Below are positions 11,307-14,553 of a DNA stretch of 64,000 bases, one piece after another; position 1 is the first letter of the stretch; each line of letters starts with the position of its first letter. Both the position numbers and the translations under genes were made by a program. Source of the DNA: Myxococcus hansupus. GTDB taxonomy: Bacteria > Myxococcota > Myxococcia > Myxococcales > Myxococcaceae. Where the stretch lies: assembly GCF_000280925.3 (NCBI RefSeq), contig NZ_CP012109.1:5042501-5106500 (forward strand), read 5' to 3'. The notes beneath the pieces were generated by a model. That model had not been told where the DNA came from and did not search any database. It saw nothing but the letters and a program-made list of their open reading frames with translations.

Positions 11307-12709
11307 CTACGGTTCGAGGTACTTCTTCTCCCGGTACTTCAACCGGACAGCCTCGGTCTGCCCATTTCGCAAGGGGTCCTGGAAAACGCAGATTGAGCTG
11401 GGGCGGTCCGGGCACAGTCGCGGCACCATCCTCCGCCAGACAAGGTCAATCAGGGAGTTGCTCATACTCGATGACGCGAAACTTCCGTCGCGAATGTTAA
11501 TGAATCGCGACAACGCCAACGTGGTTATCCACGACGTGGTCGTCTGGGAGATAGGAAATATATCCACCCCATAGCCGTTCACTTGCAGCAGCGGCGTTTC
11601 GCCGTAGGCAAATGGACGGACCGGCTGCACACCACTGTTGAGATAGATGTCGACGTTCCGTAACTCCGGCCATCCGGAAAGACCTGAGGCCCCCCCCGCC
11701 CCGATTCATCGAGGCCGGAGTCCAGGACCGTGAAGTACCCCACCAGCATCCGATTCGGGAAAGCCGGTGACGGGAAATCGAAGGGAAAGTCCTGAGGGTT
11801 AGAGGCGTTGATGGCTGCCTGGGCGGCAAAGACACCGGGCGTATTGAAGAGCGCATCGGCAACCGGCGTATAGGCATTCAGCTTGGCGCGAAGGATGTCA
11901 TCATGGGGAACGTGCCCGCCGCAAGAAGATGCCCACTGCTGCCGCAACGTCAGCAGGGTTTCTCCCGCGCTCAGGTTCACGAACCGAACGTTGTGCAGGG
12001 CCATAACGCGACGGAGTTCGTCCGCGACTTGATGCGACTTCGACGACAGGCGCGCCAGCGACTCTGGCGAACCAGACGCATCACACAAGTCTTCCAGCGC
12101 GTACCCATGCATACGAATCAGGTCCATCAACACGATGGGCTGATGCGGATTGGTCTCGATCAGTAAAGACAATACGAAACTTCCGTGCCCGATGTTCCCT
12201 ACGTCGTAGAAGCCGAAGAGATCGCGAAGGGGCTGAGAGAGCGGGCGCAGAGATTCGGCCGGAACGAAATCTGGTAGAGCGAACGCATCCAACGCGTGGA
12301 AGAGCGTCGTGGGCGCGCGCCAGGAAAAAGGGACGGCAGCAACCGTCCCATTTTGGCCGACACGGTAATAGCCCTTGATGCGGTTGTGATAGCGCATCAC
12401 TCGAGGAGGCAGCGAAGGAAAGTCATCCACGATAAGGATGGCCTCCCCAGTGCTCCGAGCCATTGAGAATCGACCAGGGTTGAACCCGAATTCGCCCCAA
12501 CTGCAGTGGGAAACATCCTGCTGAAGAAAGCAGGTATCCGCCAGAATGTCCGCCTTGACCGAATCAATTAGGTTGGCGACCACCGGATCCAATTGGTAGC
12601 CCGGCAGCGTCGCTGGCGGTATGGACACGTCGTCTCCATCCGGCCCACAGCCTGATACCGGCAGCAGAAGCAGGACGGACACCACAGGCAGGACGAACCG
12701 AAGCAGCAT
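11307..12709 (-). pseudogene. Subtilisin-like lipoprotein, frameshifted in a G8 tract
   Basis: Reading from 12709, the frame encodes a lipoprotein (lipobox LPVSGC, Cys21) with an S8-like Asp (ILIVDDFP, 95-96) and His (GNIGHGSFV, His175), then leaves frame at a run of eight G (plus strand C8, about 11690-11697). The continuation in another frame (SGLSGWPELRNVDIYLNSG...) runs to 11307 and holds TTSWITT, which aligns with the serine motif GTSMATP of subtilases (Ser codon about 11532-11534). The total, 1403 bases, becomes a whole number of codons (467 residues) if one G is added. So this is one subtilase-type secreted protease gene with a single 1-base indel: a real mutation, phase-variable switch, or sequencing error. 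Part of the Hint lipoprotein operon; 6 bases follow the upstream gene. Confidence 0.7.
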
Positions 12710-12715
12710 GAGGCC

Positions 12716-13516
12716 TCACCCTTCCAATAGCGCGGCCGTCATTGAAGCGGCTTGCTCACGCCCATGCAGGGCTTTTAGTCGAAGAAAGAGGACATCGTCG
12801 TAGATGCGCTTCACCGGCGCGGGCATGCCGGGTGAGTACCCCAATGACCGAAGCAAGGCGGACTCTCCATTGGCGAGCGACTGGACGCCCTTCACGTCAA
12901 TGTAGGCATGCATGAGGTCACGCAAGTCCGTGCTGCGGCCCTCATCCAACGCCGCGCCACCTCCTCCCGTGAGAGTCAGCTCTCGAGCGAGCGCGTCCGC
13001 AGACCGAAGCAACCACCGTTCATCCCCCTTCTTCGCGGCCGTCCGCAACACGTCGATAGAGTAGAAGCGGGATTCCGCCTGAAAATCGCCGAACGCCTCT
13101 TTCGCGAAGGCCGTGTCCGAAATGGCTCTCGAAGCAATCTCGGCACCGTGTCGAGATTCCAGGATTCGAGCGACCTGCCGCTGACGCACGGCGTTTTGAT
13201 TGTAGAGCCCTTGGACGGACAACATCTCCCGGTAGCTCTCCGTCAGCAACGCCACCGCCTCTCGAGGGAACCCGCCCACGAACTCTGGGACGGCCACGGG
13301 AGGAGGAAGCTCGACCAGCCGCTGCTTGGCAATCTCAGCCGCCCGCGCCTCCAGGCGTGCCGCCACCGGAGCAGGCAGGCCTCGCGTCGGGATGGAGTGT
13401 GCCTTCGGAGTTTGCTCCGGCGGGACTGCAGCGTCCCATGCCACGACAAGGCTCAATCCCAAGACGCTTGCGGCCACCGAGACCATGGCCATGCGCCACC
13501 GCACCGTTTTCGACAT
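12716..13516 (-). CDS. Exported helical protein of unknown function
   Basis: 266 residues with an N-terminal membrane segment or signal peptide (MAMVSVAASVLGLSLVVAW) and otherwise alpha-helical, charged sequence with no cysteine. Strong Shine-Dalgarno (AGGAGG) ahead of the ATG. No family recognised. It sits between the Hint-domain lipoprotein gene (83 bases upstream) and the frameshifted subtilase lipoprotein gene (6 bases downstream), so it is probably co-transcribed and acts in the same envelope system, for example as chaperone, substrate or inhibitor of the protease. Base composition is a little less GC-biased than the flanking housekeeping genes. Confidence 0.75.
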   Translation of the reverse strand: MSKTVRWRMAMVSVAASVLGLSLVVAWDAAVPPEQTPKAHSIPTRGLPAPVAARLEARAAEIAKQRLVELPPPVAVPEFVGGFPREAVALLTESYREMLSVQGLYNQNAVRQRQVARILESRHGAEIASRAISDTAFAKEAFGDFQAESRFYSIDVLRTAAKKGDERWLLRSADALARELTLTGGGGAALDEGRSTDLRDLMHAYIDVKGVQSLANGESALLRSLGYSPGMPAPVKRIYDDVLFLRLKALHGREQAASMTAALLEG

Positions 13517-13599
13517 GGTCTGTGCCTCCTGAGGCTAACACTGACTGGCGAGACGAACGGCTCGTGTCCATCCCGCCAGTCCAAAGGACCGATTCCTGA

Positions 13600-14553
13600 C
13601 TAACGTCGGACGGCGATGGCGCCCAGTTCGCGAGAAAGCTGGTTCTGCCAGGCCAGGTCGCCAACGAGAACGCCTTCAGCAGCCAGGAAATGGCCCGCCT
13701 TGTCCTCCGCGTTGACCTCGAAGTTGTACACGTCGAAGGCAGTGTGTTCGAAGGTAAGGTTCCGCACGGTGACAATTTCACCCTCCAGCCCGACAAACTC
13801 GTCGCCAACACGTACGGTCTTCGCTTCCACCACCCGACCGTTGCTCAAGAGCATGCCGTGGTTTTGTGTCACTTTGAGCTGACGACCGTTGTCCAGGGTG
13901 AAGACGAAGAGCGAAGGGGATTCCTTCCCCTGCGACATCGCGACGATATTGCGCGTGAGGAACCCGGGCGTCGTCAGATTCGTTGTCTCATCGAGTGAGA
14001 TAAGCTCGGTGGTCGAACGAACGGACTTCGCGGACAGCCACACTCGGAACCCATCCGCATCCTGCGTCAAAATCTGAGTATCCGCCTCGAAGCAGCCGCA
14101 TTTACACACAGCGCCGATTTGATTGTGCCGGTCGACAACCGGGTAGAATCCGGTGGACATGCCCCAACTGTAGGCCGCCTGCGTAATCAGTTGCTGGGAG
14201 TAGGCATACGCCAACTCCGATTGGCACTCCGTCATGGTGATGCCACCCACGCAGCGGGTCGTATTCTGGCCCGCGAGGCTCTGGAAGGTGGCCAGCCGCA
14301 TTCCCGGCCCAGTCTCGCTTCCCCCACCGCCTCCTCCGCCTCCTCCGCCTCCTCCGCCTCCTCCCCCACCCCCGCAGAGGCCTTGGTCCGTGAGTTCCAT
14401 GCAGGGCTGCTCCTCGATGACGATGATGTCGCGGACCCCCTGCGCCGAGCTGTCGAGCCGCGCATCCTCGGGATTCGTGACCTCCTGACCACACGCGGCG
14501 ACAAAGACGCTCATCCCCAAGCAGACCGTTAGCCAGATGCTCTTGCGTTCCAT
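13600..14553 (-). CDS. Lipoprotein with polyglycine linker and Hint domain
   Basis: 317 residues: lipobox FVAACG (Cys21), a short acidic segment, a run of 18 glycines (61-78), a cysteine-containing spacer, then a Hint (hedgehog/intein) domain from about 150 to 300. Hint landmarks: Cys154 in GCFEADTQILT as the N-terminal nucleophile, the TxxH block VTQNHGM (Thr229, His232), VYNFEV, and HFLAAEGVLVGDL. The C-terminal His-Asn needed for intein splicing is replaced by Gly-Asp, so an N-S acyl shift or cleavage, as in hedgehog or pretoxin Hint domains, is more likely than splicing. Good ribosome binding site (GGAG). First gene of a three-gene unit ending in a subtilase-like lipoprotein. Substrate and role are unknown. 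Confidence 0.85.
   Translation of the reverse strand: MERKSIWLTVCLGMSVFVAACGQEVTNPEDARLDSSAQGVRDIIVIEEQPCMELTDQGLCGGGGGGGGGGGGGGGGGGSETGPGMRLATFQSLAGQNTTRCVGGITMTECQSELAYAYSQQLITQAAYSWGMSTGFYPVVDRHNQIGAVCKCGCFEADTQILTQDADGFRVWLSAKSVRSTTELISLDETTNLTTPGFLTRNIVAMSQGKESPSLFVFTLDNGRQLKVTQNHGMLLSNGRVVEAKTVRVGDEFVGLEGEIVTVRNLTFEHTAFDVYNFEVNAEDKAGHFLAAEGVLVGDLAWQNQLSRELGAIAVRR
14321..14374 (-). repeat. 9-base microsatellite encoding polyglycine
   Basis: About four copies of the 9-base unit CTCCTCCGC (plus strand) inside a longer C-rich stretch, encoding the 18-glycine linker of the Hint lipoprotein. Unit length is a multiple of three, so slippage would change linker length without breaking the frame. 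Confidence 0.85.

What the first reader, a model, noticed from the sequence alone, without database searches (positions are those of the whole stretch)
11307..14553. Hint-domain lipoprotein, exported helper and subtilase-like lipoprotein in one operon
Three adjacent minus-strand genes encode a lipid-anchored Hint (hedgehog/intein-like) domain on an 18-Gly linker, an exported helical protein, and a subtilase-type lipoprotein. Hint domains cleave or transfer their N-terminal part; here the intein His-Asn is missing, which fits a hedgehog-like or cleaving rather than splicing reaction. Placing a self-processing domain next to a surface protease suggests a maturation or surface-display pathway not assigned to any known system that I recognise. 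The patch is slightly more AT-rich than the flanks, hinting at acquisition.
Basis: partly seen in the sequence, partly recalled or inferred. Interest (0 to 1): 0.8.

Follow-up and report, generated by a model that had tools for sequence, protein, structure and literature searches.

The report
Hint-domain, helper and protease gene trio
Three neighbouring genes of a myxobacterium, for a probably self-cleaving (hedgehog/intein-like) surface lipoprotein, its own membrane-anchored helper and a divergent subtilisin-like protease, form a gene team that recurs in several bacterial groups and whose job is unknown.

Summary
The three genes are real and conserved together. The lipoprotein has a confidently predicted Hint fold (hedgehog 1at0: Z 17.9) with Cys154 and TxxH intact and no terminal His-Asn. 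Gene 2 (all-helical, no known family) belongs to a helper superfamily; in 92 genomes of the window's family all strong hits lay beside Hint genes (13 of 13; 36 of 36). Gene 3 is a divergent subtilase whose frame is broken in this genome. Helper and divergent subtilase accompany 31 of 32 close Hint genes (Myxococcota, Pseudoalteromonas, an Oligoflexales phylum). Distant Hint/helper pairs often have thermolysin, M1 or ordinary subtilases instead. Best reading: Hint cleavage at Gly153|Cys154 matures the small domain, the helper serves the Hint precursor, the protease is an exchangeable partner. The Hint is probably the published C-type BIL type; I could not read that paper. I found no paper on the helper, partner swapping or arrays.

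The parts
13600..14553 (-). Gene 1: Hint-domain lipoprotein, 317 aa
14320..14373 (-). 18-glycine linker (residues 61-78); variable, short or absent in many relatives
   Evidence: Gly runs of 24 cassettes
14095..14307 (-). Cys-rich N-domain (residues 83-153: RC...C...C150-K-C-G), also found as stand-alone exported proteins elsewhere
   Evidence: alignment; stand-alone copies
13654..14094 (-). Hint domain (Cys154 to about residue 300; TxxH = Thr229, His232); predicted cut Gly153|Cys154
13603..13662 (-). Conserved C-terminal tail (from Gly298: GDLAWQNQ...R) in place of the intein His-Asn
12716..13516 (-). Gene 2: helper, 266 aa, N-terminal membrane helix plus all-alpha domain
   Evidence: superfamily
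11579..12709 (-). Gene 3, first part: divergent subtilase lipoprotein (Asp, His and NxSxG motifs); conserved reading up to about 11702, then an out-of-frame tail
11307..11690 (-). Gene 3, second part in another frame (Ser motif region TTSW and C-terminus)
14856..14960 (-). Remnant of a second copy of the 3' end of the neighbouring alpha-2-macroglobulin-like gene, between that gene and gene 1
   Evidence: read from the sequence; extent approximate; the neighbour's family name is recalled, no call matched it

Best explanation
A secreted Hint-processing module. Gene 1 is exported and lipid-anchored. Its Hint domain makes the N-S acyl shift at Gly153-Cys154, as hedgehog and N-cleaving BIL domains do; with no His-Asn it cannot splice, so the thioester is opened by water or another nucleophile. 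That leaves the small Cys-rich N-domain with a free or modified C-terminus: tethered to the membrane where the protein is a lipoprotein (8 of 11 Myxococcota by a simple lipobox pattern), soluble in Pseudoalteromonas. Gene 2 is the dedicated membrane-anchored partner (chaperone, foldase or acceptor) of the Hint precursor. The exported protease (gene 3) is the effector with which the matured N-domain works, as its binding or regulatory partner, and it can be exchanged for a thermolysin, M1 or ordinary subtilase. Shown: Hint fold prediction, conserved catalytic residues, near-obligate gene neighbourhood, stand-alone N-domains ending near the predicted cut. Inferred: cleavage, the helper's role, the N-domain/protease interaction.
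For: Hint model aligns Cys154 with hedgehog Cys258 (1at0, Z 17.9, rmsd 1.7 over 133). R100, C101, C150, C154, T229, H232, G298 and Q303 invariant in 33 aligned members. Stand-alone N-domains: 26 of 32 end 2-6 residues after the last Cys; Hint-linked ones have 3 residues between that Cys and Cys154. Arrays of 14 (L066), 7 (L067) and 7 (L068) copies; one stand-alone copy in a myxobacterium (L167). Helper hits lie beside a Hint in 13 of 13 and 36 of 36 strong cases, whatever the protease, so the helper belongs to the Hint; 20 of the 36 were not in the profile used. Helper families are one superfamily (hhalign P 5.2e-6 and 2.8e-10, 0 of 60 column shuffles as good in each). Divergent subtilase within 6 kb of 32 of 32, helper of 31 of 32 distinct close Hint genes; for 10 of these, found after the profiles were made (L147-L156), both are there in 10 of 10. 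A double N-domain protein precedes the same subtilase without Hint or helper hit in L070, though the similar protein in L069 has no subtilase hit. Distances of the three proteins correlate at r 0.92-0.96 over 24 cassettes.
Against: No cleavage is shown. Of 41 loci with only distant Hints, 12 had no helper hit and 19 no protease hit with my profiles, 14 and 21 if only hits of 40 bits or more count; 10 of the 41 supplied members of the helper profiles and so match by construction. The divergent subtilase occurs without close Hint and helper in 10 of the 21 genomes with a strong match, so it does not need them. In the window the protease gene is broken while Hint and helper are intact. The N-domain arrays lie in loci with no protease or helper hit. 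43 of 96 family genomes have no Hint match at all. The distance correlation shows joint inheritance, not physical interaction. No residue-level look at the modelled active site was possible.
Confidence: 0.45

Rival explanations
1. Protease and helper form the core (helper = steric chaperone of the protease, like the lipase foldase Lif), and the Hint protein is an accessory substrate or anchor that the protease cuts.
For: The helper has a Lif-like layout (membrane helix, Pro/Ala-rich linker, all-helical domain; the Lif layout is recalled). Helper and protease genes are often next to each other.
Against: All strong helper hits of the two surveys lie beside Hint genes, while the protease varies in fold (S8, M4, M1) or was not detected. 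The divergent subtilase occurs without close helper in 10 genomes. The thermolysin partner has its own FTP propeptide.
Confidence: 0.2
2. Hedgehog-like ligation: the thioester is attacked by a lipid, peptidoglycan or protein nucleophile, so the lipoprotein's N-domain becomes covalently joined at its C-terminus (an envelope tether or surface tag).
For: GCF junction and hedgehog-like Hint with no splicing residues; the lipid anchor on the other end of the N-domain in Myxococcota would make a two-ended tether.
Against: No sterol-recognition-type extension: 19-30 residues follow Gly298. Stand-alone N-domains exist without any Hint. None of 4 Pseudoalteromonas members matches the lipobox pattern.
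Confidence: 0.15
3. N-domain is a secreted toxin, bacteriocin or protease inhibitor; Hint and protease are its release system.
For: Small, Cys-containing, diversified tandem arrays in Pseudoalteromonas; hosts include predators (recalled).
Against: No toxin or inhibitor family matched the Hint protein apart from the PT-HINT name; stand-alone N-domains were not scanned on their own; no immunity-like gene recognised; no activity data.
Confidence: 0.15
4. Ordinary polymorphic toxin with a PT-HINT domain.
For: The Pfam name of the best match is Pretoxin HINT (24 of 33 members at E up to 0.01).
Against: The Hint is at the C-terminus with 19-30 residues after Gly298 in all 33 aligned members; no toxin domain follows, and in the close family the neighbours are helper and protease, not a recognised immunity gene.
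Confidence: 0.03

Closest known systems
C-type bacterial intein-like (BIL) domain with PPS-1 domain of predatory bacteria (Dori-Bachash et al. 2009)
   Same: Hint type in predators with a conserved extra domain. Known to me only from a passage in PMC9185962, one in PMC3403396 and reference lists; whether PPS-1 is the N-domain here is my guess.
   Different: The paper was not held, so whether it mentions the helper, the protease or stand-alone arrays is unknown.
Bacterial secreted Hint subgroup of Buerglin 2008 (PMC2362128), incl. MXAN_6253
   Same: Signal peptide in some, two conserved upstream cysteines, C-terminal Hint distinct from intein, Hog and BIL (section 12 and passages read).
   Different: Section 12 does not discuss gene neighbours, helper, protease or function; the rest of the paper was seen only in passages.
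Hedgehog (Hog) autoprocessing domain
   Same: Fold (1at0, Z 17.9), Cys1 after Gly, GCF junction, secreted N-terminal domain ahead of Hint.
   Different: Different N-domain, no sterol-recognition region, bacterial operon with helper and protease.
BIL domain of Clostridium thermocellum (2lwy)
   Same: Fold, Z 17.9, 24% identity over 134.
   Different: The family here lacks the C-terminal His-Asn and sits at the protein's end; the type of 2lwy was not checked.
Subtilase family S8
   Same: Profile match P 5.6e-6 with His, NxSxG and Ser motifs in register; Asp by motif.
   Different: 0 of 25 members matched Pfam PF00082 at E up to 1; extra conserved cysteines; the GTS of subtilases is mostly TTS or SSS.

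Membership tests
Hint superfamily | Hint fold | tested here: met
   Model pLDDT 84-97 per block of 10 residues over 151-300; Z 14.4-19.1 to inteins, BIL and hedgehog in the 50 rows shown
Hint superfamily | Cys1 and block-B TxxH | tested here: met
   C154, T229, H232 invariant in 33 of 33
Splicing intein / A-type BIL | C-terminal His-Asn | tested here: not met
   Gly298 followed by Asp (19), Ser (13) or Thr (1) in 33 members
Hedgehog (Hog) | Sterol-recognition region after the Hint | tested here: not met
   Only 19 residues follow Gly298 in the window protein, 19-30 in 33 members; the length of the Hog region is recalled
Hedgehog (Hog) | Cholesterol-activating Asp | not tested
   No residue-level structural alignment available
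PT-HINT polymorphic toxin | Toxin domain after the Hint | tested here: not met
   Tail lengths; alignment
PT-HINT polymorphic toxin | Immunity gene next | tested here: inconclusive
   The next genes are helper and subtilase in the close family; immunity genes have no common signature
C-type BIL | Sequence type and PPS-1 domain as published | not testable with these tools
   Paper not held
Subtilase S8 | Asp-His-Ser in order with subtilase motifs | tested here: met
   D91 (25 of 26), H171, N241-x-S243 (26 of 26), G245 (25 of 26), S389 (26 of 26), M. dinghuensis numbering; hhalign score 55.9, best of 40 column shuffles 22.6. Asp by motif only
Subtilase S8 | Pfam PF00082 match | tested here: not met
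   0 of 25 at E up to 1
Subtilase S8 | Proteolytic activity | not testable with these tools
   No assay; the window copy has a broken frame
Lif-type steric chaperone | Fold of the lipase foldase | tested here: inconclusive
   No clear PDB match
Known anti-phage defence system | PADLOC match | tested here: not met
   0 hits for 4 proteins at E up to 0.01

The most novel reading that the evidence does not exclude
A general bacterial 'Hint secretion-maturation' system: one N-domain/Hint family and one dedicated helper superfamily combined with exchangeable exported proteases (divergent S8, S8, M4, M1), in which Hint chemistry activates the C-terminus of a small secreted domain and joins it to the partner protease or another envelope acceptor, that is, a prokaryotic hedgehog-like protein-ligation pathway used in predation or surface remodelling, with stand-alone N-domain arrays as a diversified repertoire.
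Probability: 0.2. Interest if true: 0.92.

Novelty: new variant of a known kind. Interest (0 to 1): 0.7.

Why it matters
Bacterial Hint domains outside inteins and toxins have been known for about 20 years, as far as I could read with little idea of their job. A helper that goes with them, a fixed divergent protease partner in three lineages, and natural stand-alone copies of the putative product give concrete, testable handles. If the domain transfers rather than only cleaves, it would be a bacterial counterpart of hedgehog processing.

Tried and rejected
Pfam and NCBIfam gave no family for helper or protease. PDB sequence search of the Hint protein was swamped by the Gly linker; PDB searches of the protease, single and profile, found nothing. 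A first profile comparison of the protease with 7 canonical subtilases failed (P 0.24); with 19 sequences (13 ORFs from 13 of the 15 own-genome subtilase loci, two of those genes probably each met twice, plus 6 others) it gave P 5.6e-6. First helper comparisons were weak (P 0.014 to 1.7e-4); the 16-member alignment made them firm. No PDB fold matched the helper; that does not show a new fold. A MACPF-like neighbour is below cut-off (E 0.12). The promoter scan found nothing. Polymorphic toxin, splicing intein and known defence system were rejected. Loss of constraint in the broken gene was looked for and not seen.

Rows dropped or limits before counts: L114 and L157 lacked a full-length Hint; L115 repeats L014; L158-L160 fell under 130 bits and were counted as distant although they have the divergent subtilase; the window itself is not in that count. 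Most close loci supplied members of the profiles used there (not L147-L156). Two helper hits counted in the 29 of 41 are weak (L062 21 bits, L161 28 bits) and two protease hits too (L063 30, L111 26 bits). One search counted only ORFs under 190 aa at E up to 1e-3; L007/L009 are near-copies and one array member (L067 8800-9171) missed the cut. In one search, 7 matches of 22-25 bits were set aside. In one search, G069 (22.7 bits) was set aside and the copy in G060 is in two pieces. Searches covered 92 of the 96 genomes; all 11 close-Hint genomes were among the 92. Loci to fetch were chosen by me from the hit lists, not at random, and only part of the distant hits was fetched; the lists were cut.
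Full report
OBSERVATION. The window lies in a 9.49-Mb single-contig genome. Three minus-strand genes follow each other with gaps of 83 and 6 bases: Hint lipoprotein 14553-13600, helper 13516-12716, protease-like gene from 12709. The third gene is broken: conserved N- and C-terminal parts lie in two frames that change in a G-rich stretch near 11692-11702, while the five Myxococcota relatives have one ORF. 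Both pieces diverge from M. dinghuensis like the neighbouring cassette genes, so the break is recent or an assembly error. A second, intact copy of this protease family lies elsewhere in the same genome (G000:C1:7596810-7598165, L071).

HINT PROTEIN. Pfam PT-HINT scores E 2.3e-6. AlphaFold2 on 33 sequences gives a confident Hint domain. Solved folds near it include a Tetrahymena BIL domain (Z 19.1), inteins, the hedgehog 17-kDa fragment (1at0, Z 17.9, rmsd 1.7 over 133, Cys154 opposite Cys258) and a Clostridium BIL domain (Z 17.9). Across 33 members R100, C101, C150, C154, T229, H232, G239, A244, G258, N277, G298 and Q303 are invariant; Gly298 is followed by Asp, Ser or Thr and 19-30 residues remain. 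So the first-step chemistry is kept and the His-Asn needed for intein-type C-terminal cleavage is absent.

THE N-DOMAIN. Residues 83-153 are conserved from Myxococcota to Pseudoalteromonas and an Oligoflexales genome, whereas the Gly linker is not. Three of five Pseudoalteromonas genomes searched also encode this domain alone, as small exported proteins in tandem arrays (14 copies in L066, 7 each in L067 and L068) and as two-domain proteins. Of 32 short N-domain proteins 26 end 2-6 residues after their last Cys; in the Hint proteins Cys154 follows C150 after three residues. A myxobacterium has a stand-alone copy too, ending 6 residues after the Cys (L167:7586-7981). This is why I think the N-domain is the product and the Hint a processing device.

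THE HELPER. The model (pLDDT 86.5) is an N-terminal helix plus an all-alpha domain without a clear PDB match. In 92 genomes of the window's family the close helper was found in 11, exactly the 11 with a close Hint (over 200 bits), 13 of 13 hits beside Hint genes; six of these 11 supplied rows of the profile. Many distant Hint genes have their own helpers. The three helper groups are one superfamily: hhalign P 5.2e-6 and 2.8e-10, 0 of 60 column shuffles as good in each comparison, reversed controls poor. All 36 strong hits of the third group lie within 2.6 kb of a Hint gene; 20 of them were not in the profile.

THE PROTEASE. The divergent subtilase has no Pfam S8 match (0 of 25), but its profile matches canonical subtilases with P 5.6e-6 (score 55.9; best of 40 column shuffles 22.6) with the His, NxSxG and Ser motifs in register; the Asp is placed by motif and near-invariance. 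In 92 genomes it has strong matches in 21: 11 with close Hint and helper, 10 without. Ten stand-alone copies were fetched, one per genome from 9 of those 10 (not G059) plus the second copy of the window's genome; none has a Hint or helper hit in its 16-18 kb.

GENE ORDER ACROSS BACTERIA. Of 32 distinct close Hint genes (L115 repeats L014), 32 have the divergent subtilase and 31 the helper on the same strand within 6 kb. They come from Myxococcota, Pseudoalteromonas and the phylum of the Oligoflexales genome; several are sister species or two genes of one locus, so the count overstates independence, and many supplied rows of the profiles. The ten of L147-L156, found afterwards, have both partners in 10 of 10. 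The three proteins' distance matrices correlate at r 0.917-0.958 over 24 cassettes (largest of 2000 permutations 0.40), which shows joint inheritance. In a 247-genome sample of the order of Pseudoalteromonas only that genome and one weak match appeared. Of 41 loci with only distant Hints 29 have a helper hit, 22 a recognised protease and 19 both; with 40 bits or more, 27, 20 and 17. Ten of the 41 supplied rows of the helper profiles. Protease partners there are M1 plus thermolysin M4, M4, or ordinary subtilases; others have beta-propeller proteins. Five loci from the Oligoflexales phylum (L162-L166) showed neither helper nor protease, and L161 only a weak helper hit.

ORIGIN OF THE WINDOW COPY. 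M. dinghuensis has the cassette at the same place beside the alpha-2-macroglobulin-like gene, but synonymous divergence is 1.27-1.58 for the cassette against 0.32-0.62 for three flanking genes, and GC3 is 0.69-0.75 against 0.885-0.937 in three flanking genes of the window and 0.895-0.917 in the M. dinghuensis cassette (a fourth flanking gene, tyrS, was read out of frame there and is left out). Replacement by a diverged copy fits; a leftover second 3' end of the alpha-2-macroglobulin-like gene at about 14856-14960 marks past recombination. At the same site another genome (L076) has the subtilase alone.

MECHANISM AND STANDING. Best reading: Hint cleavage at Gly153|Cys154 matures the N-domain, the helper serves the Hint precursor, the protease is an exchangeable partner of the product. 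The cleavage, the acceptor and the N-domain/protease contact are inferred. Prior work: Buerglin 2008 (section 12 and passages read) noted secreted bacterial Hint proteins with two conserved upstream cysteines, including one of M. xanthus. C-type BIL domains with a 'putative predator-specific' domain were described in 2009; I saw only others' citations. Of PMC2797640, PMC12487129 and PMC7765530 I saw passages. Ten library searches (Hint domain with subtilisin/myxobacteria, protease/Myxococcus, Bdellovibrio, Pseudoalteromonas; MXAN_6253; intein-like or BIL terms) listed no paper that, from its listing or the passages read, describes this gene trio. One search showed only 20 of 164 papers, and the library lacks most subscription journals.

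Noticed in passing
window 14856-14960 and 15093-21137: Alpha-2-macroglobulin-like gene (15093-21137, name recalled) with a leftover second copy of its 3' end between it and the Hint gene.
   Followed up: partly
L066 8110-13637; L067; L068: Tandem arrays of small exported N-domain proteins in Pseudoalteromonas, highly diverged from one another.
   Followed up: partly
L070 7528-9955: Double N-domain protein directly before a divergent subtilase without any Hint or helper hit.
   Followed up: no
L053-L055, L057, L058, L065, L112: Hint, M1-like lipoprotein, helper, thermolysin (M4) and Hint genes in one cluster, in 7 loci; the order differs in L065.
   Followed up: partly
L103 5587-15244 and similar loci: Distant Hint clusters include a HEAT/Vitellogenin_N-like protein, a 400-aa exported protein without family and an RCC1-repeat lipoprotein (Pfam on L103 only).
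   Followed up: partly
L165 5511-7163, L164 9013-10632, L052 10623-11897: Exported proteins with a shared 'LGxGYDP/FDP'-like start near Hint genes; one has a below-cut-off MACPF match (E 0.12).
   Followed up: partly
G000:C1:7596810-7598165 (L071): Second, intact divergent subtilase in the window's genome.
   Followed up: partly
window 14092-14106: C150-K-C152-G-C154: cysteines at -4 and -2 before Cys1 could allow redox control of cleavage; the title of a solved intein in the list (3nzm) speaks of a redox trap (the disulfide itself is recalled).
   Followed up: no
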